In this document: positions 117 to 10,283 of the stretch, one piece after another
Layout: every line of letters starts with the position of its first letter
Numbering within the stretch: position 1 is the stretch's first letter
Source of the DNA: Actinomycetota bacterium
GTDB lineage: Bacteria > Actinomycetota > Actinomycetes > Streptosporangiales > Streptosporangiaceae
DNA length: 11,339 nucleotides
NCBI GenBank assembly: GCA_003140115.1
Contig: PLIQ01000305.1
Coordinates: forward strand, 15,785-27,123
Direction of reading: 5' to 3'
Made by a program: the position numbers and the translations under genes
The notes under the pieces: model-generated
What the model was told of the DNA's origin: nothing
The model's database searches: none
What the model saw: the letters and a program-made list of their open reading frames with translations, nothing else

Positions 117-827
117 TTAGCGTGACCGGGCGGGCGGGTGCCAGACCTGTACCGTGAGCGTGTCGCCCCGATTCGCCTTCCTCGGCGGCCTGGGATCCTG
201 ATCGACCACCAGCCCGTCGACCGCCATCGGGCGCTCCGTGAGCCGAACGACCCTGATGTGGAGCCCACGCCGGGTCGCCACCTCCAGGTACACCTGGTAG
301 AACAGCCCGCGAACGTCCGGGACGGCGACGGGACTGTTCCGCCGGCGCCGCGGCCCCAGCCGGCCGGTCAGCGCCAGCAGACCACCCGCCGCTTCGATCG
401 CGGCCAGCTCACCGATGATGCCCGGATCGGCCGGCGCCCGCCCCGCCGATCCGATGCCGGTCCCGGGCTGACCCAGGCCTCCGCCCGAGCACCGGAGGCC
501 GACCGTCTCGTCGTAGCGCTTGCGGCTGTCCGGATCGCCGAGCACCTCCCACGCCGTGTCGAGGATGTGCTGCGCCCGCGTGACCGCCGTGGTCACGTTC
601 AGCGCGGCACCCGAGATCAGTTCCGGCCGCAGCAGGGCCGCCTTGGCGTCGTACTCGCGCTTGATCCTGCGCGTCTCGGCGCCCGGCAACACGCCGAGGA
701 CGTCGTACCAGGTTATGCCGGGCTGGATTATGCCGGGCTCCGTAACGTCACCTGGATCACGCCAGCGGGAGCGGGAGGCCGCTCCGGCTCGGACCGGCTG
801 ATCGCTGGACAGGACGGGCTGGTACAT
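117..827 (-). CDS. J-domain-like protein with C-terminal PASTA domain, degenerate HPD motif
   Basis: This is a 236-residue protein. Residues 40-106 read as a J domain: TWYDVLGV at the start, a basic helix II (RRIKREYDAKAALL), and the typical end AWEVLGDPDSRKRYD. The invariant HPD tripeptide that stimulates Hsp70 ATPase is replaced by R67-P68-E69, so ordinary DnaJ co-chaperone activity is doubtful. A Gly/Pro-rich linker (about 110-165) with an RRRR stretch leads to a PASTA domain (167-230: VAVPDVRGL, then VVDQDPRPP and GDTLTVQV). PASTA domains usually bind peptidoglycan fragments outside the cell, but I see no signal peptide or membrane segment, so the location is unclear. The ATG start is supported by AGAGG five bases upstream. 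The gene stands alone, with about 300 bp separating it from the histidine-kinase gene. Domain calls are confident; function is unknown. Confidence 0.8.
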   Translation of the reverse strand: MYQPVLSSDQPVRAGAASRSRWRDPGDVTEPGIIQPGITWYDVLGVLPGAETRRIKREYDAKAALLRPELISGAALNVTTAVTRAQHILDTAWEVLGDPDSRKRYDETVGLRCSGGGLGQPGTGIGSAGRAPADPGIIGELAAIEAAGGLLALTGRLGPRRRRNSPVAVPDVRGLFYQVYLEVATRRGLHIRVVRLTERPMAVDGLVVDQDPRPPRKANRGDTLTVQVWHPPARSR

Positions 828-1125: not shown

Positions 1126-1137
1126 TCACGTGCCCCC
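1113..1137 (-). terminator. Possible hairpin terminator at the end of the kinase operon
   Basis: Left arm 1113-1122 pairs with right arm 1129-1137, giving nine G/C-rich pairs with one bulged base (1117) and a 6-nt loop. The TGA stop of the histidine kinase (1126-1128) falls in the loop. There is no U-tract afterwards on the minus strand, so this would be the tract-less type often seen in high-G+C actinomycetes, or simply a stabilising 3' structure. Confidence 0.4.
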
Positions 1138-2442
1138 GTCGCGGAAGGGATGCACACCGCGGCGTTCGGCACTCACTTCGACCGGCCGGATGGCCCGGGG
1201 CTGACTGTGCCGCCAGGACACCGACATCAGGGCGCCGCCAAGTTCGGAATCGCCGACCTGCCAGCGGCCGCCGGTGGACCGGACGATCGAGTCGCCGAGA
1301 GCCAGGCCGAGGCCAGTCCCGGAGCCGTGCTCGGTGGTCCGGTGGAACCGGTCGAACAGACGGGACCGTTCCGCCTCCGGGATGCCGGGACCGCTGTCCT
1401 CCACCATCAGGCTGACCCGGCTGCCGTGGGCCAGGACCCGGATCCGGACCTGCCCGGCGGGGCCGGCGTAGCGGCAGGCGTTGTCGACCAGCACTCCGGC
1501 CAGCCGGTCGATCCACTCCGGCGGCGCGCTGATCAGGACCGGCCCGTCCGGGGTGTCGGCGGTGACGACCGGGCCGACGCTCCGGAACCGGTCCGCGCAC
1601 GCCTGGGCCAGCGTGGCCAGGTCGACCGGCTCGTCGCCCGGGGGCGGCGGCTGGGAGTCGAACCGGGCCAGCCAGAGCATGTCGTCGACGAGCTGGCGCA
1701 GCCGCTGGGTCTCGCCCTGGATCCGGGTGAGCGCGTCCCGGTAGCCGTCGGCGTCCCGCGGGGCGGACAGCGCCACGTCGGCCTCGGCCCGGATCACGGC
1801 CAGCGGTGTGCGGAGCTCGTGCGAGGCGTCGGCGGTGAACTCCAGCTGGCGGCGGCGCGACTGCTCCACCGGGGCCAGCGCACGCAGGCCCACTACCAGC
1901 GAGGCGAGGAACATGGCGGCCAGCACGAACGGTCCGGCGATGAGCTCGGCGTCCTGCAGCAGGTTCCGGGTGTGCGCGTCGCCGTCCAGGCTCTGGCCGG
2001 CGATCAGCCAGCCGCTGCCGTCCCGGGCCATCTTCAGCAGGAACTGCGCATCCCGGGGCCCGATACCAACCGTTAGCGCCTGCCCGTCGCGGGCCGTGCC
2101 GGTGCGGGAAAGGGACGCCGGCAGGGACGGCGCACCCGGGCTGTGCGCGGTGACCGTCCCGGCAGCGTTCACCGTCCACAGGTACACCGGCGCCGAATCG
2201 TCGTCCGCGTCATCATCCGGGTCCCGGCGGCCGCCGGGGCCGCTGGCCGGCTGGCTGAGCTGGGACGGGTCACTCCGGACATCGGAGAGCCGGTCGGCCA
2301 GCCGGGCTTCGGTCTGCCCAGTCAGGTGCGCGCCTACCAGCACGTTGAGCACGATCACGGCGGCCACGTAGGCCACGGCCAGCACCGCGGTGGCCACCGC
2401 GGCGACCTTCACCGCGGGGCCCGGCCGCATCCTGGCTTTCAT
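1126..2442 (-). CDS. Two-component sensor histidine kinase
   Basis: A 438-residue membrane sensor kinase, partner of the response regulator 6 nt upstream. Transmembrane segment 1 is at about 12-36 and segment 2 at about 166-186, enclosing an extracytoplasmic sensor region of roughly 130 residues. Almost no HAMP-like linker follows segment 2. The phospho-accepting H208 lies in ASHELRTPLAVIRAEAD. The ATPase domain has its N-box around N321 (VDNACRYA), the G1 box DSGPGIP (349-355), the F-box RLFDRFHR (361-368) and the G2 box GSGTGLGLAL (373-382), so all catalytic boxes are intact. The sensor loop contains an acidic patch, DPDDDADDD (74-82), and no cysteine. The start is the ATG at 2442; an in-frame ATG at 2430 is possible, and neither has a strong ribosome site, which suggests coupling to the regulator gene. 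The signal sensed is unknown. Confidence 0.93.
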   Translation of the reverse strand: MKARMRPGPAVKVAAVATAVLAVAYVAAVIVLNVLVGAHLTGQTEARLADRLSDVRSDPSQLSQPASGPGGRRDPDDDADDDSAPVYLWTVNAAGTVTAHSPGAPSLPASLSRTGTARDGQALTVGIGPRDAQFLLKMARDGSGWLIAGQSLDGDAHTRNLLQDAELIAGPFVLAAMFLASLVVGLRALAPVEQSRRRQLEFTADASHELRTPLAVIRAEADVALSAPRDADGYRDALTRIQGETQRLRQLVDDMLWLARFDSQPPPPGDEPVDLATLAQACADRFRSVGPVVTADTPDGPVLISAPPEWIDRLAGVLVDNACRYAGPAGQVRIRVLAHGSRVSLMVEDSGPGIPEAERSRLFDRFHRTTEHGSGTGLGLALGDSIVRSTGGRWQVGDSELGGALMSVSWRHSQPRAIRPVEVSAERRGVHPFRDGGT

Positions 2443-2448
2443 GCTGGC

Positions 2449-3117
2449 TCAGGCCGGGGTGATCCGGTAGCCGACGCCCCGGACAGTCTCGATCCGCACT
2501 CCCCCGCCGGCCAGCTTGGCCCGCAGCCGGGCCAGGTGGACGTCGATGGTGTTGGAGCCGAAGGCGTCGGCCTCGTTGTCCCAGACGTGCTGCGCGATCG
2601 AGCGGCGGTCCACCACGTTCGGCGACCGGCGCATCAGGATCTCCAGGATGCCGAACTCGGTACCGGTCATCGCCGGGGCCTGGCCGCGGACCAGTACCTG
2701 GCGGGTGGCCGGATCGAACTCGACCTCGCCGATCACCATCCGCGGCGGCTGGCTGACCTTGGGCCGGCGCTGCAGCGCCCGCAGCCGGGCCAGCAGCTCG
2801 CCGAAGTCGAACGGCTTGACCAGGTAGTCATCGGCGCCCGCGTCCAGGCCGGTAATCCGGTCCGCGGGCGTGTCCCGGGCGGTCAGCATCAGCACTGGCG
2901 GGGCGGTACCGCTCCGGCGCAGCCGGGCCAGGAGGTCCAGGCCGGACAGCCGGGGCATGCGCCAGTCCAGCACCACCACCTCGTAGGAGTAGAAGCGCAG
3001 GTAGTTCGCTGCGATCTCGCCATCGGGCACCAGATCCACGACATAGCCCTGCTCCCGCAGCCCGCGGGCCAGGACTTCGCCGAGATTCTCGTCATCTTCT
3101 GCCACCAGTACCCTCAC
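2449..3117 (-). CDS. OmpR/PhoB-family response regulator
   Basis: A 222-residue regulator. The receiver domain occupies about 1-118: acidic pocket EDD (7-9), phospho-accepting D51 (VVVLDWRMP), T79 (MLTARD) and K101 (DDYLVKPF). A winged-helix DNA-binding domain follows at about 125-222, with the expected TGTEFGILEILMRRSPNVV and the C-terminal VETVRGVGYRI hairpin. The start is GTG at 3117, preceded by a G-rich stretch (CTGGGG) that may act as ribosome site. It precedes its kinase by 6 nt and follows dprE2 by 41 nt, so it probably shares the transcript of the arabinan-precursor operon. Regulators of this class bind direct repeats spaced about 11 bp. Such repeats occur before this operon and before the divergent one, making it the best local candidate for their binding protein. 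That link is inference. Confidence 0.95.
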   Translation of the reverse strand: MRVLVAEDDENLGEVLARGLREQGYVVDLVPDGEIAANYLRFYSYEVVVLDWRMPRLSGLDLLARLRRSGTAPPVLMLTARDTPADRITGLDAGADDYLVKPFDFGELLARLRALQRRPKVSQPPRMVIGEVEFDPATRQVLVRGQAPAMTGTEFGILEILMRRSPNVVDRRSIAQHVWDNEADAFGSNTIDVHLARLRAKLAGGGVRIETVRGVGYRITPA

Positions 3118-3160: not shown

Positions 3161-3919
3161 TCACCGGGAGACCCGGCGCCAGGCAGGACGGGGGACGAGC
3201 CGGAACGCCACGGCCAGGCCGGCCAGCGGCGCCGGGATCCAGACGGCGGCCTTGCCGCCGCGCAGGGCCGCGGCGGTAGCCGCGCCGACCTTGGCGGGCG
3301 TGGTGGCCAGCGGCGCGGGCGGCATGCCCGCGGTCATCCGGCCGGTGACGAACCCGGGCCGGACCAGGACCACCCGGACTCCGCTGCCGTGCAGCGAGTC
3401 GGCCAGCCCGCGGGCGAACGCATCCAGCCCGGCCTTGGCCGCCCCGTACACGAAGTTGGCCTTGCGCGGGCGGACCGCGGCCACCGAGGACAGCATCACG
3501 ATCGTGCCGTGCCCCTGCTCGCGCATCCGGGTCGCGAGCGCCAGCAGGGCGGTGACGTGCCCGGTGAAGTTGGTGTCGATCATGGTGGCGGCCCGGGTGA
3601 CGTCGGCCTCCACGTCGGCCTGCGGGATGAGCACGCCGGCTGCTGAGATCACCAGGTCCACCGGGCCCGCGGCGAACTGGGCGTCGGCAAACCCCTGGTG
3701 GCCGTCCGCCTGGAGCGCGTCGTACCTGGCCGTGCGGGTCTGGTAGGGCAGCGTCTGGCCGGCTGCGGCCAGCCGCGCTTCATCCCGGCCGGCCAGGACG
3801 ACCTCGGTGCCGGGCGGGGCGTCCAGCGCGGCCAGGATGGCCAGGGCGAGCTCGCTGGTGCCGCCGAGCACCAGGATGCGGGAAGGCGCGGCGTGCTCGC
3901 GGCCGGGCGAAGCGGTCAT
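3161..3919 (-). CDS. dprE2: Decaprenylphosphoryl-2-keto-ribose reductase (DprE2), SDR family
   Basis: A 252-residue short-chain dehydrogenase, close in length to mycobacterial DprE2 (about 254). It reduces the 2-keto intermediate made by DprE1 to decaprenyl-phosphoryl-arabinose, using a nicotinamide cofactor. Seen: nucleotide-binding loop GGTSELA (19-25), SAAG (92-95), structural N117 (DTNFTG), and the catalytic set S145 (VMLSSVAAVR), Y158 and K162 (YGAAKAG). The C-terminal RLVPRPAWRRVSR resembles the mycobacterial enzyme. The start is the ATG at 3919, which overlaps the dprE1 stop by 4 nt (ATGA). The open frame continues upstream, but only as an alternative reading of dprE1. The tight coupling to dprE1 fits the known need for both proteins to complete one epimerisation. 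Confidence 0.93.
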   Translation of the reverse strand: MTASPGREHAAPSRILVLGGTSELALAILAALDAPPGTEVVLAGRDEARLAAAGQTLPYQTRTARYDALQADGHQGFADAQFAAGPVDLVISAAGVLIPQADVEADVTRAATMIDTNFTGHVTALLALATRMREQGHGTIVMLSSVAAVRPRKANFVYGAAKAGLDAFARGLADSLHGSGVRVVLVRPGFVTGRMTAGMPPAPLATTPAKVGAATAAALRGGKAAVWIPAPLAGLAVAFRLVPRPAWRRVSR

Positions 3920-5259
3920 ACGTTCACCAGTCCGAGTCGGCGGCCGAGGTCGGAGCGGAACCTCGACGCGGGGTCGAGCGAGGCCCGGGCCGCGCGCCAG
4001 CTGTCCAGATCGCGGCCGTACATCCCGGTGAAGGCGTCCCGGCTCAGCCGGCTGTCCTTGCACAGGTAGACGCGGCCGCCGGCCTCGGCTACCTGGCGAT
4101 CCAGGTTGTCGAGCAGGCGGTGCAGGTTTGGTCGGCCCGCTGGCATGTCCACCGCCAGCGACCAGCCGGGGAGCGGGAACGACAGGTAGTTGCCGCTGGC
4201 CGGGCCGAATCGCTTGAGGGTGCCGAGGAAGGCGGCAGCGCGGTTCCGTTGCAGTTCGGTGATCACGTGGGCCAGCAGGTTCTCTGCCCCGAAGGGCACG
4301 ACGAACTGGTACTGGCGCAGGCCGGCAGGCCCTAGCGTCCGGTTCCAGTCCTGGACCGCGTCCAGGCGGTGGAAGTACTCCGGTATGCCGGCCACGCTGG
4401 TGCGGCCGGCTGGCGAGGCCCGGAACCACAGCTGGTTGAACGCGCGGGCCGACCATGTGGTCACCGGGCAGAACGGCAGCGCCGGCGCGGGCCAGGGGCG
4501 TCCCGGGCGGTAGTGCAGGCCATCCGCCTCGTGAACAGGGTCGGGATAGGTCAGGTGGTTGCCGGTATCGAGCACGCCGCGGCCCAGCGAGCGGCCGGTG
4601 GCGGATAGGTCGACCCAGGACACGGCGTACCGGGCGCCGGGTTGGTCCTGCGCGGCCAGCAGCGCGTCCAGGCCTGGCAGCCTGCGGGTCGTGACCCGCA
4701 GGCGGGCGCTGCGGATCTGCAGCAGGCGGAGCCGGACGCTGACGATGACGCCTGTCAGGCCCATGCCGCCCACGGTGGCGCGGAACGCGGGCGTGCCCGG
4801 GTGGACGGCGCGCAGGGCGCCGTCGCCGTCCAGCAGCTCGATCGTGTCGATCCAGGCGGAGATGGAGCCGTCCGCGTGCTGGTTCTTGCCGTGCACGTCG
4901 GCCGCGACCGCGCCGCCTACGGTCAGGTGCCGGGTTCCGGGCAGCACCGGCGGGAGCAGGCCGAGCGGCACGAGGCAGGCCAGCAGCTCGGTGAAGGTGA
5001 CCGAGGCGCTGACCCGTACCGCGGCGTGCTCTAGGTCGGGCTCGATCCGGCTGGCCGTCACGGGGTGCAGCACCACGCCGCCGGCGTTCTGGGCCGCGTC
5101 GCCGTAGCTGCGGCCGGCCCCGCGGGCCAGCACGCCGCCGGCCGGGGCGCCGACGATGAGGTCGCCGAGCTGGCGCAGGTCCAGCGGGCCGGTCACCAGG
5201 GCCCGTGACGGCGCTGTCCGGCCCCAGCCGGACAGTGCCCGTTCGGCCGTCGTCGTCAT
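3916..5259 (-). CDS. dprE1: Decaprenylphosphoryl-ribose 2'-oxidase (DprE1), FAD-dependent
   Basis: A 447-residue FAD-binding oxidoreductase, compared with about 461 in M. tuberculosis. It oxidises the 2'-hydroxyl of decaprenyl-phosphoryl-ribose, the first half of epimerisation to arabinose. Family signatures: GWGRTAPS at the N-terminus (11-18), FAD-binding GRSYGD (49-54), LPGTRHLTVGGAVAADVHGKN (106-126), the substrate-side RQYQFVVP, FPLPGW (361-366) and the active-site lysine K401 in CKDSR. The position equivalent to M. tuberculosis Cys387, the covalent target of benzothiazinones in the motif after FP-PGW, is Ala369 (GCG codon at 4153-4155). The start is the ATG at 5259, 8 nt after the ubiA stop, with a weak ribosome site. 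The long open frame upstream of this ATG is an alternative reading of ubiA. It overlaps dprE2 by 4 nt. Confidence 0.95.
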   Translation of the reverse strand: MTTTAERALSGWGRTAPSRALVTGPLDLRQLGDLIVGAPAGGVLARGAGRSYGDAAQNAGGVVLHPVTASRIEPDLEHAAVRVSASVTFTELLACLVPLGLLPPVLPGTRHLTVGGAVAADVHGKNQHADGSISAWIDTIELLDGDGALRAVHPGTPAFRATVGGMGLTGVIVSVRLRLLQIRSARLRVTTRRLPGLDALLAAQDQPGARYAVSWVDLSATGRSLGRGVLDTGNHLTYPDPVHEADGLHYRPGRPWPAPALPFCPVTTWSARAFNQLWFRASPAGRTSVAGIPEYFHRLDAVQDWNRTLGPAGLRQYQFVVPFGAENLLAHVITELQRNRAAAFLGTLKRFGPASGNYLSFPLPGWSLAVDMPAGRPNLHRLLDNLDRQVAEAGGRVYLCKDSRLSRDAFTGMYGRDLDSWRAARASLDPASRFRSDLGRRLGLVNV

Positions 5260-5267
5260 CAGGTCGC

Positions 5268-6170
5268 CTAGAGCCCGGCCACGAACAGCGCCAGCCAGGC
5301 CAGCTCGCAGGCCACCATGGGGCCGTCGCGGGTCAGCAGGTCCTCCACTGGCGTGGCTGTGCCGTGCCCGGTCAGCACGCCGAACCGGACCAGCGCGGCG
5401 GCCAGCGGCAGGCCGCTGGCCAGGTGCCAGCGGGCGGTCCCGGGCGGCTGGCCGGCCGCCCAGGCCAGGTAGCACCCGATCATCGCGGTGCCGGCCGCGA
5501 GCTGGGCCAGCCGCAGCGCCCCGGCCCGGTACCGGTGCATGGCCGGCCGGTGCGCGATCGCATCGGGCCCCAGGCTGGTCAGCTCGGTGTGCCGCTTGGC
5601 CACGGCTACGCCGAACGCGCCCAGGCTGCAGACCAGCAGAAACCACCCCGATGGCCGCACGTGGGTGGCTGCCGCGCCGCCGAGCACGCGGAGCACGAAC
5701 CCGGAGGCCACGAAGCACAGCTCGAGCACGGGGATGTGCTTGAGCAGCCCGGAATACAGAAACGAGATGCCCAGATAGCCGCCGACCGACGCGGTCAGCA
5801 GCGGCTCGCAGATGACCACCCCCGCGGTGATCCCGGCCGCGGCGCTCACCGTGCTCAGCGCGATCGCGTGCGACTTGGGCAGCTCCCCGGCGGCGACCGG
5901 CCGGTGCCGCTTGCGCGGGTGCCGCCGGTCCCGTTCGGCGTCCGCGACGTCGTTGGCCAGGTACACGGCCACCGAGGCGCAGCCGAACGCGGCTGCGGCC
6001 ACCAGCGCGTAGCCTAGCCCGTCGTCCCGGCCCAGCGTGGCCCCGGCCAGCGGCGCCGCAAACACGAGCAGGTTCTTCGGCCACTGCCGCGGCCGGGCCG
6101 TCGTCAGGACGGCCGTGACCCACCGTAGCAGCCGGACCGGTGGTGACCCGGCCTCCGTCCCGGCGGTCAC
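5268..6170 (-). CDS. ubiA: Decaprenyl-phosphate phosphoribosyltransferase (UbiA/DPPR synthase)
   Basis: A 300-residue polytopic UbiA-superfamily prenyltransferase that joins PRPP to decaprenyl phosphate, giving decaprenyl-phosphoryl-5-phosphoribose, the first committed step to the arabinose donor. Seen: RPRQWPKNLLVFAAPLAG (26-43) as in the mycobacterial Rv3806c family, the Mg-binding motif N73-D74-x-x-D77-x3-D81, then HPRKRHRPVAAG (84-95). YSGLLKH (139-145) and AKRHTEL (191-197) form the second motif region. About eight or nine hydrophobic helices are visible. The start is GTG at 6170, whose GTGA overlaps the stop of the upstream glycosidase gene, implying translational coupling. dprE1 follows after 8 nt. 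The DPPR-specific phosphatase of the pathway is not encoded in this window. Confidence 0.93.
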   Translation of the reverse strand: MTAGTEAGSPPVRLLRWVTAVLTTARPRQWPKNLLVFAAPLAGATLGRDDGLGYALVAAAAFGCASVAVYLANDVADAERDRRHPRKRHRPVAAGELPKSHAIALSTVSAAAGITAGVVICEPLLTASVGGYLGISFLYSGLLKHIPVLELCFVASGFVLRVLGGAAATHVRPSGWFLLVCSLGAFGVAVAKRHTELTSLGPDAIAHRPAMHRYRAGALRLAQLAAGTAMIGCYLAWAAGQPPGTARWHLASGLPLAAALVRFGVLTGHGTATPVEDLLTRDGPMVACELAWLALFVAGL

Positions 6171-7417
6171 CGCGCGTACACCACCGTGAAGTCACGGCTG
6201 TAGACCGAGTAGTACCGGTAGGCGCTCTGCTGCTGGGTCGGCAGCAGGTTCACCGGCCGGGGGTCGGATGGATGACCATGCGCCTGGTAGTACTCGAACG
6301 ACATCCAGAACGGGTTGATGTCCAGCTGGAGCGCCTCGACCGCGCCGGCCCGCTGCAGCAGGCCGGCCAGCGTGCGCACGTCCAGCGCCGGACCGTACAC
6401 GAAGATGACCCGGCCGTCCCGGGTGACGCCCAGGCCGGAGCGCCACACGTAGTAGCCGCCGCCCAGGGTGGCGCCCCAGCTGCCGATCACGTCCTGGTTC
6501 ACCGATGCCGGGACGCGGCCTTGATCCACGATCAGCCGCAGGTTCTGCCGCACCCCGGTCACGTCCGGGGTCATCCGGACCTCACTGCCCCAGGCACCGA
6601 TCTTGATCGTGCCGTTGCGGTAGTAGACCACCGACGCCGCCCCGTCGGTCAGCGTGCCGCGGGTGGTGCCGTTGAGGTAGAAGCCGCCGCCCGCGGTGTT
6701 CAGCTTGAAGCCGCCGTTGAACGTGGCCAGGAGGCCGGTGCGGGTGCCAGCGGGCACGTACGGCTCGGCCTTCCAGTTACCCGGGCCCGGGTCCTCCGCG
6801 CCGGGGCGCAGCTGGAACCGGACCAGCCGCTGGTCCATCGAGACGATCCCGGCCACGTACGAGGTATGCACCCGGTCCGGCCGCAGGTAGGTGCCGAACA
6901 TGGCGGGCTGGCCGTTGACCTTCTCCAGCACGCGCCAGGCGCCCTCGCCCGGCAGCGGCGCGCCCGCCGGGGAGGTCAGCCGGGCCGGGATGATCGGCTT
7001 GAACCCGTGCGTGCGCGAGCGGGCGCTGCTGGCCTTGGCTGTCGCCAGGCTACTCGGCGGGGCGGCGAGGGAGAAGCCGGGCGTGCCGCCGACCTTGGGC
7101 GGGGAGTACGTCAGCCACTCGCCGAACGTCACCACCGGGCCCAGGTAGTGGTCCCGGGCCCATTCGGCCAGCTTGGAGGAAGCCGAACCGCCACCTGGGG
7201 CGGTCATCGCCTGCCCGACGGAGAAAGCCGCCCAGCAGCACAGGATGGCGATCAGGGCCAGCCCGGCCCGGACCGCACGGCGGTGCAGCAGGCGGATCCG
7301 GCCCCGGCGACGCCGGGCTCCCGGCCCCCGGGACCCCCCTGGGCCGGTGTCGTTCGGGATGGGGCCGCCCGGCCCGGTGTCGTGACGGCCAGCATGCCGG
7401 AATCCAGGTCGGGCCAC
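6167..7417 (-). CDS. Membrane-anchored phosphodiester glycosidase (NAGPA) domain protein
   Basis: A 416-residue protein. The N-terminus (1-49) is basic and Gly/Pro-rich with a repeated DTGPGG (13-18 and 23-28). One hydrophobic helix (about 50-70) then acts as signal anchor, placing the rest outside the membrane. Residues about 185-413 match the phosphodiester glycosidase (NAGPA, formerly DUF2233) fold: ATFNGGF (231-237), GGGFYLNG (243-250), DGAASVVYYRNG, GGGYYVWRSG (319-328) and LQLDINPF (363-370). Family members cleave sugar-1-phosphate diesters or act on exopolysaccharides; the substrate here is unknown. The start is GTG at 7417, strongly supported by GAGGAGGA eight bases upstream. It is first in the operon with ubiA-dprE1-dprE2, so it probably acts on an arabinan-containing or phosphodiester-linked envelope glycan. 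That role is inference from context. Confidence 0.88.
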   Translation of the reverse strand: MARPGFRHAGRHDTGPGGPIPNDTGPGGSRGPGARRRRGRIRLLHRRAVRAGLALIAILCCWAAFSVGQAMTAPGGGSASSKLAEWARDHYLGPVVTFGEWLTYSPPKVGGTPGFSLAAPPSSLATAKASSARSRTHGFKPIIPARLTSPAGAPLPGEGAWRVLEKVNGQPAMFGTYLRPDRVHTSYVAGIVSMDQRLVRFQLRPGAEDPGPGNWKAEPYVPAGTRTGLLATFNGGFKLNTAGGGFYLNGTTRGTLTDGAASVVYYRNGTIKIGAWGSEVRMTPDVTGVRQNLRLIVDQGRVPASVNQDVIGSWGATLGGGYYVWRSGLGVTRDGRVIFVYGPALDVRTLAGLLQRAGAVEALQLDINPFWMSFEYYQAHGHPSDPRPVNLLPTQQQSAYRYYSVYSRDFTVVYAR

Positions 7418-7425
7418 TTTGGCTG

Positions 7426-7433
7426 TCCTCCTC
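7426..7433 (-). promoter_or_regulatory. Strong Shine-Dalgarno site of the glycosidase gene
   Basis: The minus strand reads GAGGAGGA here, 8 nt before the GTG at 7417. It is the strongest ribosome site in the window and decides the start of the first gene of the arabinan-precursor operon. Confidence 0.8.
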
Positions 7434-7459
7434 GGAAATGCGACTGCGTTCCCGAAGAG

Positions 7460-7491
7460 GGTCTACCGGCCCGACATGAAGGAACCATGAC
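7460..7491 (-). promoter_or_regulatory. Operon promoter with 11-bp direct-repeat regulator box (box 1)
   Basis: On the minus strand, positions 7491-7475 read GTCATGGTTCCTTCATG: two copies of TCATG with an 11-bp period, the usual layout of OmpR/PhoB-family operators. After exactly 9 nt comes TAGACC (7465-7460), a plausible -10, which would give a start near 7453 and a leader of about 35 nt containing the strong ribosome site. There is no good -35; the box covers that position, as expected for an activator-dependent promoter. Sixteen of 17 bases recur at 9725-9741. The binding protein is not proven; the response regulator at the end of this operon is the local candidate. Confidence 0.6.
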
Positions 7492-7535
7492 GCGATTGCC
7501 CGTACGGCCGTGCCACTGACCTCGGGGCGGCACGA

Positions 7536-7573
7536 CGGTCACGGTTTCCGTGCGCTCGTATGCACGGTGACCG
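7536..7573. other. Large interrupted inverted repeat between the two minus-strand operons
   Basis: CGGTCA (7536-7541) pairs with TGACCG (7568-7573), and CCGTGC (7548-7553) pairs with GCACGG (7562-7567). This makes a 12-bp stem with a 6-nt one-sided bulge and an 8-nt loop. It lies between the end of the NuoF-like gene and box 1 of the glycosidase operon. On the plus strand it is followed by a short A/T-rich stretch. It could terminate read-through from the NuoF-like gene or be a regulatory site; the sequence does not decide. Confidence 0.4.
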
Positions 7574-7624
7574 CCATTTATTGATGTCCGGATTCACGAT
7601 CTGCCGCCGCGATGGCACCCGGCG

Positions 7625-7660
7625 CTGACCCGATATGCTCTGGTCAGGCAAATGCTGACC
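7625..7660 (-). terminator. Possible terminator/alternating hairpins after the NuoF-like gene
   Basis: CTGACC occurs at 7625-7630 and 7655-7660, and its complement GGTCAG at 7642-7647. The central copy can pair with either neighbour (6-bp stems with loops of 11 and 7 nt). The nearer pair lies 22 nt past the stop of the NuoF-like gene. No U-run follows, so termination is only a possibility. Confidence 0.3.
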
Positions 7661-7681
7661 TGGTCGGGCAGCCCGGCAGCC

Positions 7682-8971
7682 TCAGGTCCAGTCATCCTCA
7701 TGAGCCGGGACGCTGTCCGGCAACGGCAGGAACGGCCGGCGGCTAGAGCCCGTGCAACGGCCGCGTTCGTGCCACGCCAGTTCAGGCTCGAAGACCTGCA
7801 AGGCGCTGCGGACGAACCGGATCGTGCCGTCCGGATGGCTGCACGCTCCCCGGCCGGCCACCAGCCCGGCCCAGCGCTCGAGGTCGGCGCGGGTCTGCCG
7901 GCGGGGCCGGGGCCCGGCCAGCTCGGCCAGGGCGGCGGCGATGCGGGGCAGCCCATTCAGGCACGGCCCGCACTGGCCGGCGGACTCCGCCGCCAGGTAG
8001 GCGACGACCCGCGCGGTCTCGGTCAGGCCGCAATGATGTGATGGCAGCGCGGCAAGCACGCCCGCGCCGGCTGCGGCGCCGTGCCGGCGCAGCGACCCGT
8101 TGTCCAGCGTGAGGCCGACCGAGTCCGGCAGCGCCAGCCAGCTGCCGTGGTACCCGCCCACCAGCCAGGCTTGCGTCTCAGCGTCAGAGCTGAGCAGCGT
8201 CCGCAGCGGCGTCCCGATCGCGGTCTCGATGACCCGGCAGCCGCCGCCTGCCGGGTACAGCGTCGTGAGCATGCTGCCAGGCTCGGCCGCCGTGCCGATC
8301 GCCCGGAACCAGCGCGGGCCATAGCGGGCGATCAGGGCCAGGTGAGCGAGGGTCTCCACGTTCTGCACCAGGGTGGGCTGACCGTGCAGGCCGCGCTCGG
8401 TCACCCGCGGCGGGGTGAAGAGCGGCAGCGCCGGGCCGCCGCCGATGAGGTTCACCACGGCTGATTCCTGGCCGGCCAGGAATCGCGGTGGCGTTTCGGT
8501 GATGGTGACCTCGAGCCGGTCCACCCCTCGGGCCCGGCGTCCGGCCAGTGCGCGCCGGACACCGGATCCGGCACCCCGGTGCAGGTACAGGCGCGCCTCG
8601 CCGGCCCCGACCGCCTCGCCGGCCAGCTGCAGCCCATCCAGCACCAGGTGCGGCGCGACCTGCAGCAGGAGCTCGTCCTTGCGGCTCGCGGGTTCGCTTT
8701 CGGCGCCGTTGGCCACCACGACCTTCCGGCCCCGCGCGGCGGCCACGATGGCCAGCTTGCGGTGCGCCGGAAAGGCCGCTCCGCCCCGGCCGGTAAGGCC
8801 GGACGCTTCGATGTGCGGGATCAGCACCCCGGCGGACCCGCTGTACGGGACAGGACCGAATCTAGCCAGGTGACCGCGGAGGTCTTCCGGCCGGGACGGC
8901 AGCAGGCGGGGCAGCCCGGCGGGTGGCCAGGCAACCCGGTCCCGGGACTGCTCGGACGCGGCGGCGGTCAC
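7682..8971 (-). CDS. NuoF-like (NADH dehydrogenase 51-kDa type) flavoprotein
   Basis: A 429-residue protein from the GTG at 8971, whose GTGA overlaps the stop of the preceding gene. The frame opens further upstream but that extension is the other gene read in another frame. The N-terminal half has the FMN/NADH-binding signatures GLTGRGGAAFP (58-68), VVANGAESEP (85-94) and GQPTLVQNVETL (197-208). An SLBB-like middle follows, then an Fe-S region ESAGQCGPCLNG (329-340) and GACSHPDG (375-382). In complex I NuoF the first motif has three cysteines; here only C334 and C337 remain, with Ala331 at the first position, plus C377, giving three of four ligands. No NuoE, NuoG or other complex I gene is near, so this is a stand-alone actinobacterial relative that probably moves electrons between NAD(P)H and a membrane or ferredoxin partner. 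Its partner gene upstream looks truncated. Confidence 0.82.
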   Translation of the reverse strand: MTAAASEQSRDRVAWPPAGLPRLLPSRPEDLRGHLARFGPVPYSGSAGVLIPHIEASGLTGRGGAAFPAHRKLAIVAAARGRKVVVANGAESEPASRKDELLLQVAPHLVLDGLQLAGEAVGAGEARLYLHRGAGSGVRRALAGRRARGVDRLEVTITETPPRFLAGQESAVVNLIGGGPALPLFTPPRVTERGLHGQPTLVQNVETLAHLALIARYGPRWFRAIGTAAEPGSMLTTLYPAGGGCRVIETAIGTPLRTLLSSDAETQAWLVGGYHGSWLALPDSVGLTLDNGSLRRHGAAAGAGVLAALPSHHCGLTETARVVAYLAAESAGQCGPCLNGLPRIAAALAELAGPRPRRQTRADLERWAGLVAGRGACSHPDGTIRFVRSALQVFEPELAWHERGRCTGSSRRPFLPLPDSVPAHEDDWT

Positions 8972-9270
8972 CGCGACACCGGCCGGCGGCCAAGACGGGC
9001 AGGGCGGCTTGACTGCGACATGTGTTCCGCGAAGACGGCGGCTACCCGGCAGCACCGCGATACCGGGCGGCCCGCGGCGGGCAGCCGCCAAGCAACGGCC
9101 GCCACCACGACCAGCACGCAGCCGACGGCCAGTCCGAGCAACCGCTCCTGCGGCAATCCCAGGATCCGGCGGTTCCTGGTCACGACCAGGCCCAGCACTA
9201 GCACGGTGAGCAGCAGTGTCACGATGCCGGTAGCCCGGCTGGCGTACCAGAAGACGATCGAACCGGTCAT
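8968..9270 (-). CDS. Ferric-reductase-like membrane protein, apparently internally deleted
   Basis: A 100-residue protein with two hydrophobic helices (about 4-30 and 44-63). The start, SIVFWYASRATGIVTLLLTV, looks like the first helix of actinobacterial ferric-reductase-like proteins (WY-ARATG-V-LLL), and RLLGLAVGCVLVVVAAVAWRL looks like their last helix. The intervening four helices, with the haem-ligating histidines, are absent; the only histidine is near the C-terminus. It therefore seems to be an in-frame remnant, or a very reduced form, of a protein normally about 200 residues long. The ATG at 9270 is chosen; a TTG fifteen bases upstream is less likely. It begins 1 nt after the stop of the preceding gene and overlaps the NuoF-like start by 4 nt, so coupling is preserved. 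Function is doubtful. The family comparison is from memory, not alignment. Confidence 0.55.
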   Translation of the reverse strand: MTGSIVFWYASRATGIVTLLLTVLVLGLVVTRNRRILGLPQERLLGLAVGCVLVVVAAVAWRLPAAGRPVSRCCRVAAVFAEHMSQSSRPARLGRRPVSR

Positions 9271-9271
9271 G

Positions 9272-9613
9272 TCACGAGCCGCCAAAGGTGACCGGGCGCT
9301 GCCTGAGCCTAGGGGCCGGCAGCGGACTCAGGCTGAAACCGTCCGACCCGGAGCAGGCCGGGGCAGGAGAGCTGAAAGCGGAGGTGGCTGGCCGGCTGAG
9401 CCTGCTGGCACCCGAGCCAGGGGCGGCCCCCTGTCCCGCCCCAGGCGAACTGCTGCCCGGAGCCGCCATCCGGGTTTCCCGGGCCGCCCCGGGCCGCGCG
9501 ACCGCCACGGCGCCTGCGGCAACGACACTGGCCAGGACGACAGACGTGGCGACTGAGCCCACCCTGGCCGGGCCTTCTTCCCGGGCTGCGACCCGCTGGC
9601 GAAGCTCGTTCAT
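9272..9613 (-). CDS. Small single-span membrane or secreted protein, unknown function
   Basis: A 113-residue protein: a charged N-terminus (MNELRQRVAAREEGPARV), one hydrophobic segment (about 19-38, SVATSVVLASVVAAGAVAVA), then a low-complexity Ala/Ser/Pro/Gly tail ending in VTFGGS with one cysteine. I recognise no domain. Short proteins of this make-up often precede ferric-reductase-like genes in actinomycetes, which fits its place 1 nt before that gene; this is recollection rather than a search. Start choice is uncertain: ATG at 9613 gives a natural charged N-terminus but has no ribosome site, while GTG at 9640 (nine residues longer) would be almost leaderless relative to the -10-like TAACCT at 9654-9649. 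The long low-complexity tail makes even its coding status less sure than its neighbours. Confidence 0.55.
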   Translation of the reverse strand: MNELRQRVAAREEGPARVGSVATSVVLASVVAAGAVAVARPGAARETRMAAPGSSSPGAGQGAAPGSGASRLSRPATSAFSSPAPACSGSDGFSLSPLPAPRLRQRPVTFGGS

Positions 9614-9648
9614 AGTCGAGCTGTGGTTTATGGGCGACACGCACGGCG

Positions 9649-9680
9649 AGGTTAGGCGGCCATCATGAAGGAGACCTTAA
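9649..9680 (-). promoter_or_regulatory. Promoter of the redox remnant operon with regulator half-site (box 2)
   Basis: On the minus strand 9680-9664 reads TTAAGGTCTCCTTCATG. The right half (TCCTTCATG) is identical to boxes 1 and 3; the left TCATG is degraded (12 of 17 bases match box 1). After exactly 9 nt comes TAACCT (9654-9649), a good TAnnnT -10, placing the start near 9642. The same box-to--10 spacing as before the glycosidase operon argues that it is real. Confidence 0.5.
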
Positions 9681-9724
9681 GCGCCAGGTCAGCGGGATGC
9701 CCGGGCGCAGATCCGCAGCCTGAT

Positions 9725-9741
9725 CATGAAGGAAGCATGAC
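9725..9741. promoter_or_regulatory. 11-bp direct-repeat regulator box in the divergent region (box 3)
   Basis: On the plus strand CATGAAGGAAGCATGAC differs at one base from 7475-7491. Its minus-strand reading has two TCATG copies 11 bp apart. It lies about 60 bp upstream of box 2 in the same orientation, and 29 bp before the plus-strand -10-like TACCCT at 9771-9776. It could act on either the minus-strand redox operon, the plus-strand membrane-protein gene, or both. Confidence 0.55.
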
Positions 9742-9755
9742 AACGGGCCGTTCGC

Positions 9756-9783
9756 GGCGGCCGTGCCGCCTACCCTCCAGGCA
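9756..9783 (+). promoter_or_regulatory. Probable leaderless promoter of the DUF6069-like gene, with inverted repeat
   Basis: TACCCT (9771-9776) fits a -10 hexamer and lies six bases before the ATG at 9783, so transcription would begin at or next to the start codon. There is no ribosome site, consistent with a leaderless mRNA. GGCGGC (9756-9761) and GCCGCC (9765-9770) form an inverted repeat with a 3-nt centre directly against the -10. It could be an operator or chance in G/C-rich DNA. The -35 position (about 9748-9753) is poor. Confidence 0.45.
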
Positions 9784-10283
9784 TGGTCAAGCAGCTCGCA
9801 TCCATCAACGGGATCGACTTCCTCCCGCGGCACTCCCAGCCGAGAACCTCCCGGGTGGTGATGGCCACCCTTGCCGCCGTCGCCGGATCCCTGGCCGCGG
9901 ACGCCCTGCTGGTGGTCATCGGGCAGGCCGTCTTCCCCGGCACCAGGGGATACGTGCATTTCCAGTTCCACGACTACGCCAAGCTGACCGTGATCGGGGT
10001 CATCATCGCGTGCACAGCATGGCCTGTCGTCACGCGGATCTCATCCACCCCCCGGTGGCTGTTCCTCCGCCTGGCCATCCTAGTTACGCTCATTCTGTGG
10101 CTGCCCGACGTCTACATCCTGTACCAGGGCCAGCCCGCCGACGCGGTCGCCGTCCTGTTCATGATGCACCTGGCCATTGCCCTGGTCACCTACAACGTGC
10201 TCGTACGGCTGGCACCCACCGGTCCCGCCCCGCAGCAAGCCAGCGGTGAGCCGCAGGTCATCTTCAAGGCGGATGCCCCCTAG
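9783..10283 (+). CDS. Four-helix membrane protein, DUF6069-like
   Basis: A 166-residue protein with four hydrophobic helices at about 25-50, 66-85, 92-109 and 121-142. Conserved-looking polar positions in or near the helices are YVHFQFHDYAKLT (57-69), the WP pair at 80-81, LPDVYILYQGQP (107-118) and MMHLAIALVTYNVLV (127-141). The pattern resembles the actinobacterial DUF6069 membrane family, whose function is not established; the assignment is from memory. The ATG at 9783 is the first start in the frame and suits a leaderless message. The C-terminal tail (145-166) is soluble. It is transcribed away from the redox remnant operon, and one copy of the regulator box lies 42 bp upstream. Confidence 0.8.
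   Translation: MVKQLASINGIDFLPRHSQPRTSRVVMATLAAVAGSLAADALLVVIGQAVFPGTRGYVHFQFHDYAKLTVIGVIIACTAWPVVTRISSTPRWLFLRLAILVTLILWLPDVYILYQGQPADAVAVLFMMHLAIALVTYNVLVRLAPTGPAPQQASGEPQVIFKADAP

What the first reader, a model, noticed from the sequence alone, without database searches (positions are those of the whole stretch)
7475..9741. A three-copy 11-bp direct-repeat element links two operons into a putative regulon
CATGAAGGAACCATGAC at 7475-7491 recurs at 9725-9741 with one difference, and in weaker form at 9664-9680 (first nine bases identical). Each full copy contains two TCATG units (minus strand) 11 bp apart, one helical turn, which is how OmpR/PhoB regulators bind. None lies in a gene; all lie upstream of starts. 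This would place the glycosidase/DPA/two-component operon and the redox remnant operon (and perhaps the DUF6069-like gene) under one regulator, probably the response regulator encoded at 2449-3117.
Basis: partly seen in the sequence, partly recalled or inferred. Interest (0 to 1): 0.75.

Follow-up and report, generated by a model that had tools for sequence, protein, structure and literature searches.

The report
Conserved switch site for envelope-sugar operon
A short repeated DNA sequence that a reader spotted is very probably a conserved switch site in front of a cell-envelope sugar operon that also encodes its own likely regulator, while the suggested link to a second operon holds only in part.

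Summary
The repeats are real. In the direction of the glycosidase/DPA/two-component operon, copy 1 reads GTCATG-N5-TTCATG, then 9 nt, then a -10-like TAGACC (window 7491 to 7460, minus strand). The same 32-bp layout stands before orthologous operons in relatives: half-sites 80-86% identical between promoters, flanks 30-33%. Exact matches occur in 8 of 297 family genomes, 7 of them among the 14 that carry an orthologue of the window's response regulator. In two related genomes where the regulator gene lies apart from the operon, a site stands about 120 bp before it. Best reading: an autoregulated OmpR-family promoter with the repeat in place of the -35. The two-operon regulon is partly supported. 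At the redox operon the weak copy (9664), not the strong one (9725), has a correctly spaced -10. One of 10 orthologous redox operons (G033) has a similar weak site before its first gene; nine do not. The only other genome sharing the window's intergenic stretch holds it as a relic. Binding, activation and the signal are inferred. A new member of a known kind.

The parts
7475..7491 (-). Operator copy 1, GTCATG-N5-TTCATG in operon direction
   Evidence: (44.1 bits with its -10; a training site)
7460..7465 (-). -10-like hexamer TAGACC, 9 nt after the second half-site
   Evidence: same spacing in the 17 promoters aligned
6167..7417 (-). NAGPA-like (phosphodiester glycosidase) protein, first gene of the operon
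   Evidence: PF09992, 24.1 bits, just below the cutoff of 25; many relatives carry PF09992
5268..6170 (-). UbiA-type decaprenyl-phosphate phosphoribosyltransferase
   Evidence: NF008978, 231.1 bits, cutoff 207
3916..5262 (-). DprE1-like oxidase
   Evidence: NF053785, 423.3 bits, below its cutoff of 500
3161..3919 (-). DprE2-like reductase
   Evidence: NF053786, 241.8 bits, below its cutoff of 250
2449..3117 (-). OmpR-family response regulator, probable binder of the site
1126..2442 (-). Partner sensor histidine kinase
   Evidence: HisKA, HATPase_c
9725..9741 (-). Operator copy 2, GTCATG-N5-TTCATG, without a -10 at the standard spacing
   Evidence: 21.0 bits; 27.4 bits over the 17 bp
9664..9680 (-). 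Operator copy 3 (weak), TTAAGG-N5-TTCATG
   Evidence: (13.4 bits with its -10)
9649..9654 (-). -10-like TAACCT, 9 nt after copy 3 and 8 nt before a GTG at 9640 (possible leaderless start)
9272..9640 (-). Small ORF (122 aa) before the redox genes; no Pfam match; homologues in 3 of 12 redox loci
8968..9285 (-). Internally shortened ferric-reductase-like membrane protein (105 aa)
   Evidence: aligns to both ends of two intact relatives; PF01794 in those relatives
7682..9091 (-). NuoF-like (Complex1_51K) protein

Best explanation
The repeat is the operator of an autoregulated two-component system. The sensor kinase phosphorylates the OmpR-family response regulator encoded in the same operon. The regulator binds as a head-to-tail dimer to two half-sites 11 bp apart, placed over the -35 region and ending 9 nt before the -10, and recruits RNA polymerase at a promoter without a good -35, switching on glycosidase, DPA enzymes, regulator and kinase. 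The redox remnant operon at 7682-9640 is a probable extra target in some lineages through copies 2 and 3. Shown: sequence, fixed geometry, conservation, co-occurrence. Inferred: binding, activation rather than repression, the identity of the regulator, and the signal.
For: Fixed 32-bp layout in 17 aligned promoters (16 from relatives): half-sites 0.80 and 0.86 mean pairwise identity, -10 0.71, flanks 0.30-0.33. Among the 19 loci with NAGPA of 57% or more, 10 of the 17 that hold upstream sequence have the site, all in the same orientation to the gene. Exact pattern in 8 of 297 family genomes, 7 of them among the 14 with the regulator orthologue (Fisher p 7e-10). With one mismatch: 12 of 14 with the regulator, 31 of 283 without; in 11 of the 12 the hit lies at the operon or the regulator gene. 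Of 6 regulator-bearing genomes not used to write the pattern, 4 have a hit (p 0.002), 3 of them in place. Two operon sites not used for the matrix score 31.9 (L006) and 36.5 (L180). In G007 and G009 a site lies about 120 bp before the regulator gene, apart from the operon; in L001 the divergent DprE2 gene has its own site in the same relative orientation. Class-wide, 1 of 394 genomes, G001 itself, has an exact match. Same geometry as reported for OmpR-type SARP promoters (passages of PMC10936776).
Against: No binding or expression data. G003 and G006 have the site at NAGPA but no regulator orthologue (best E 1e-44 and 3e-39); their assemblies may be incomplete. G033 (no close NAGPA) and G104 have the regulator but no operon-type site, though G104 keeps the same recognition segment. 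The reversed-pattern control also hits 22 of 297 genomes, and more often with the regulator (5 of 14) than without (17 of 283; p 0.002), so part of the one-mismatch excess may be composition. In one search the reversed control hits 4 of 394. Pattern and matrix were written from several of the promoters they score. Genomes are related, so p values overstate independence; one search scored only the 10 best candidates per genome.
Confidence: 0.82

Rival explanations
1. Strong form of the first reader: the same regulator controls both the DPA operon and the redox operon as a functional unit, perhaps with DUF6069.
For: Copies 2 and 3 score 21.0 and 13.4 bits, above shuffles and high-GC controls; both face the redox operon; copy 3 has a -10 at the right spacing and a GTG 8 nt further. 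In G033, whose regulator is 83% identical and which lacks a close NAGPA, the redox operon has TTCAGC-N5-TTCATG-N9-TAGCCT (12.9 bits; 17.3 for the proximal half plus -10, where 2 control hits in 447 kb reach 15) about 110 bp before a homologue of the small first ORF. In G007 a ferric-reductase-family gene next to the kinase has its own site.
Against: 9 of 10 redox operons in relatives (NuoF-like 57% or more) have no site above 5.9 bits. In G004 the shared 475-bp stretch, 91% identical, is a relic with changes in both copies and lost starts; none of the other 296 genomes sampled has more than short weak matches. The window's ferric reductase is internally deleted. Nothing found for DUF6069.
Confidence: 0.42
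2. The site is read by another OmpR-type DNA-binding protein (a paralogous response regulator or a SARP) that co-occurs with the operon.
For: G003 and G006 have the site without a detected orthologue of the regulator. A similar site with the same spacing stands before a different OmpR-family regulator, 41% identical, in four other genomes.
Against: Co-occurrence with this regulator and sites before the regulator gene when it is separate (G007, G009).
Confidence: 0.12
3. The regulator represses: the dimer on the repeat blocks polymerase at a weak promoter, and a change of phosphorylation relieves this.
For: The site covers the place of the -35 element, where binding can also block polymerase (inference).
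Against: No competing -35 is visible (inspection); the geometry equals that of known activators.
Confidence: 0.12
4. Chance repeats without function.
For: Short two-copy repeats are often chance (stated by the repeat tool); copy 3 is weak.
Against: Conservation and co-occurrence for copy 1.
Confidence: 0.02

Closest known systems
PHO boxes of PhoP/PhoB (two 11-nt direct repeat units)
   Same: Two 11-nt direct repeat units bound by an OmpR-family regulator (passages of PMC4415409 and PMC7866108); the half-site shares TTCA with the Streptomyces unit as I recall it
   Different: Half-site ends ATG; target is a DPA operon. The PhoB model scores 171.7 (cutoff 296.2) and RppA 221.2 (cutoff 250) for the regulator; orthology to Streptomyces PhoP was not tested directly.
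SARP (AfsR) promoters, afs box
   Same: Direct repeats 11 bp apart over the -35 region with the 3' repeat 8 bp from the -10 (passages of PMC10936776); here 9 nt after a 6-nt half-site
   Different: The candidate regulator has receiver and Trans_reg_C domains and sits beside a kinase; no SARP activation domain was matched.
CutRS of Streptomyces
   Same: Actinomycete two-component system with a small regulon
   Different: CutR binds TAWATAAA (passages of PMC12802291), unlike this site.
Mycobacterial DPA genes (DprE1, DprE2, UbiA)
   Same: Same enzyme families by NCBIfam, two of three below the curated cutoff
   Different: I recall no dedicated two-component system beside them; three papers listed for those terms, listing only.

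Membership tests
OmpR/PhoB-family response regulator with its operator | Receiver plus winged-helix Trans_reg_C domain | tested here: met
   PF00072 and PF00486 above cutoffs
OmpR/PhoB-family response regulator with its operator | Tandem direct half-sites about 11 bp apart at target promoters | tested here: met
OmpR/PhoB-family response regulator with its operator | Direct binding of the regulator to the repeat | not testable with these tools
   needs EMSA or footprinting
Activator promoter with the repeat replacing the -35 (sigma adaptation / class II-like) | Proximal repeat at a fixed 8-9 nt from the -10 | tested here: met
   9 nt in the 17 promoters aligned, which were chosen by an ungapped pattern or matrix; two of them (L006, L180) were found by a matrix not trained on them
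Activator promoter with the repeat replacing the -35 (sigma adaptation / class II-like) | Transcription rises with the regulator | not testable with these tools
   needs reporter or RNA data
Autoregulated two-component system | Site upstream of the regulator's own transcription unit in several genomes | tested here: met
   operon promoters; before the regulator gene in G007:C187 and G009:C195. That regulator and NAGPA share one transcript is inferred from gene order.
SARP | OmpR-type domain followed by a bacterial transcriptional activator domain | tested here: not met
   one search shows receiver plus Trans_reg_C only
CutR regulon | TAWATAAA site | tested here: not met
   conserved core is GTMAYG-N5-TTCATG, compared by eye
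Conserved two-operon regulon | Site upstream of the redox-operon orthologues | tested here: inconclusive
   1 of 10 loci with a weak site in place (L208, 12.9 bits), 9 without

The most novel reading that the evidence does not exclude
A lineage of soil actinomycetes has put the DPA (arabinan donor) pathway and a phosphodiester glycosidase under a dedicated, self-amplifying two-component switch with a near-private promoter code, and members tie ferric-reductase-type redox genes to the same switch (window and G033 redox operons, G007 ferric reductase), coupling envelope sugar supply to redox state.
Probability: 0.33. Interest if true: 0.6.

Novelty: new member of a known kind. Interest (0 to 1): 0.42.

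Why it matters
It gives a testable, rare promoter code for an actinomycete two-component system whose signal is unknown, and places enzymes of the DPA pathway (DprE1 is a tuberculosis drug target, recalled) under a dedicated sensor in Streptosporangiaceae-type organisms. The exact 32-bp pattern is rare enough that regulon members can be listed from sequence.

Tried and rejected
CutR as a model: rejected, different motif. Literature: TCATGAAGG with 'response regulator' gave 5 papers, none judged relevant from the listing; DprE1/DprE2 with two-component gave 3 (listing only); phosphodiester glycosidase with decaprenyl and actinobacteria gave 0; Trebonia with two-component and regulon gave 0. These are the searches behind my statement that I found no earlier description.

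Ordinary sigma-70 promoter: the scan found no promoter-like site in 7300-9900, and by eye no conserved hexamer stands 16-18 nt before the -10.

Duplication of the whole promoter from 7475 to 9725: flanks do not align clearly better than shuffles (136 of 2000 reach the downstream score, 1996 of 2000 the upstream one) or random window pairs; rejected.

Conservation of copy 2 in G004 as independent support: first taken so, then rejected, because the shared 475 bp are a relic.

First motif CATGAAG-N4-CATGAC with one mismatch: 19 of 20 genomes had matches, and the reversed control 10 of 20; too loose, replaced by the 32-bp layout. AT-rich matches such as CATGAATATTTCATGAC (L111, L118) lack the -10 spacing and were set aside.

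Two-mismatch comparison: 12 of 15 genomes (14 with the regulator plus G003) against 2 of 15 chosen controls; reversed control 5 of 15 against 4 of 15. Of the 20 matches in the first set, 15 lie at the operon, the regulator or the G007 ferric reductase; the other 5 were not examined.

The one-mismatch hit of G175 lies on another contig and scores 10.6 bits; its operon site was found by the matrix (36.5 bits).

Full report
What is there. The minus strand from 7417 to 1126 carries NAGPA-like protein, UbiA-type decaprenyl-phosphate phosphoribosyltransferase, DprE1-like, DprE2-like, OmpR-family response regulator and histidine kinase, all in one direction. The nearest loci come from records titled Streptosporangiales, Streptosporangiaceae, Trebonia and similar. 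No whole genome is held for the window.

Observation. Both full copies and the weak copy exist as described. The two full copies are the only matches in the window with up to 3 mismatches, 0.01 expected.

The missing part. In operon direction, copy 1 is GTCATG-GTTCC-TTCATG, 9 nt, TAGACC. The same order and spacing stand upstream of NAGPA in L001, L002, L003, L004, L006, L007, L008, L010, L011 and L013: 10 of 17 loci with upstream sequence among the 19 loci whose NAGPA is 57% or more identical (L009 and L017 begin at the gene). L005, L012, L014, L015, L016, L018 and L019 lack it. L008 and L011 have the same site and close flanks and count as one in the alignment. The other 61 of the 80 loci are more distant; 10 of them have matrix hits of 12-25 bits, none among those with at least 64% GC, which I take as chance in AT-rich DNA. 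Further operon sites are in L173 (G032), L174 (G052) and L180 (G175). L019 is a second NAGPA copy of Trebonia kvetii beside another two-component pair.

Footprint. Over 17 promoters, mean pairwise identity is 0.80 and 0.86 in the half-sites, 0.71 in the -10, 0.48-0.49 in the two spacers and 0.30-0.33 in the flanks. Choosing promoters by the pattern inflates the site values, but not their place before orthologous genes.

Co-occurrence. The regulator orthologue (E up to 1e-60, 10 best candidates scored per genome) is in 14 of 297 family genomes. The exact 32-bp pattern is in 8 of 297: seven of the 14, plus G003. With one mismatch: 12 of 14 against 31 of 283. Fisher p: 7e-10 and 1.4e-9; for the six regulator-bearing genomes not used for the pattern, 4 of 6 against 30 of 282, p 0.002. 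Against this, the reversed-pattern control hits 22 of 297 genomes, 5 of 14 with the regulator and 17 of 283 without (p 0.002), so counts alone are partly confounded. Position is the better argument: in 11 of the 12 regulator-bearing genomes with a hit it lies at the operon or the regulator gene. Class-wide, 1 of 394 genomes, G001 itself, has an exact match, the reversed control 4 of 394.

The site follows the regulator gene. In G007 and G009 regulator and kinase lie on another contig than NAGPA, and a site stands about 120 bp upstream of the regulator match (G007:C187:342-373, match from 496; G009:C195:14472-14503, match 13688-14350 minus). The two are related and their flanks are alike, so this may be one event. 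In L001, DprE2 is divergent and has a second site in the same relative orientation.

Exceptions. G003 and G006 have the operon site without a regulator orthologue. G104 has the regulator and NAGPA side by side without the standard site, and G033 has the regulator without a close NAGPA (36%).

Second operon. Copy 2 (21.0 bits) has no -10 at the standard place; copy 3 (13.4 bits) has TAACCT at the right spacing and a GTG 8 nt further. I fetched 10 redox operons with a NuoF-like protein of 57-68%; three partial matches of that level at contig ends (G009:C507, G009:C948, G052:C642) were not fetched. One, G033 (L208:2182-2213), has TTCAGC-N5-TTCATG-N9-TAGCCT at 12.9 bits, about 110 bp before a homologue of the window's 122-aa ORF, followed by ApbE-, ferric-reductase- and NuoF-like genes. 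The proximal half plus -10 alone scores 17.3 there and 15.5 at copy 3; 2 of 13 control hits in 447 kb reach 15. The other nine have nothing above 5.9 bits, nor have two more distant ones (L218, L219). A ferric-reductase-like gene is present in 12 of 12 redox loci and an ApbE-like gene in 9 of 12 (L215 supplied the queries). The window's 105-aa version aligns to both ends of the intact protein and lacks the middle. G004 shares 475 bp around copies 2 and 3 at 91%, with lost starts, a frameshift, a base change in copy 2 and an insertion plus a base change in copy 3; 14 other genomes of 297 have only matches of 25-54 bases. G007 has a site before a ferric-reductase-family gene next to the kinase. 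So a redox theme recurs, but not as a conserved unit.

Mechanism. The regulator has receiver and winged-helix domains. The segment SNTIDVH-ARLR, which I take for the recognition helix (recalled), is invariant in the 15 sequences aligned, including G104. Repeats 11 bp apart over the -35 region and 8 bp from the -10 are the reported layout of SARP promoters, where two OmpR-type domains engage the repeats and sigma region 4 (passages of PMC10936776). I infer the same kind of activation. PHO boxes are likewise two 11-nt repeat units (passages).

Verdict. Copy 1 is very probably a conserved operator of an autoregulated two-component/DPA operon; the two-operon regulon is plausible in some lineages. 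New member of a known kind. I found no earlier description in the searches named under Tried and rejected.

Noticed in passing
L182:4158-4189 (also L183, L184, L185): A similar site, [CT]TAACGGAACCTTCATG-N9-TAGCTT, stands immediately before the start of a different OmpR-family regulator (L182: 41% identical to the window's) in four genomes; flanks are nearly identical among the four, so their conservation is not informative.
   Followed up: partly
L208:2182-2213 (G033): Weak site with correct -10 before an intact redox operon in a genome that has the regulator but no close NAGPA.
   Followed up: partly
window 8968-9285: The ferric-reductase-like protein is internally shortened: both ends align to two intact relatives, the middle is missing.
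   Followed up: partly
L117:5140-5613 (G004): An isolated 475-bp island 91% identical to window 9557-10030, with DUF6069 and the small ORF decayed, in a genome whose NAGPA is only 68% identical to the window's; suggests recent transfer.
   Followed up: partly
L178:7136-7152 (G104): Between divergent NAGPA and regulator genes G104 lacks the standard site but has an 11-bp direct repeat GTTCAGGAACC-GTTCAG; perhaps a diverged operator.
   Followed up: no
L111:5898 and L118:5664: CATGAATATTTCATGAC, identical in two genomes (G011, G008); in L111 it lies upstream of a methyltransferase gene.
   Followed up: no
L019:10001-13587 (Trebonia kvetii): A second NAGPA copy lies beside another response regulator (37% identical) and a kinase, without the site.
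   Followed up: no
window 117-827: A DnaJ domain and a PASTA domain in one predicted protein, minus strand, after the kinase gene.
   Followed up: no
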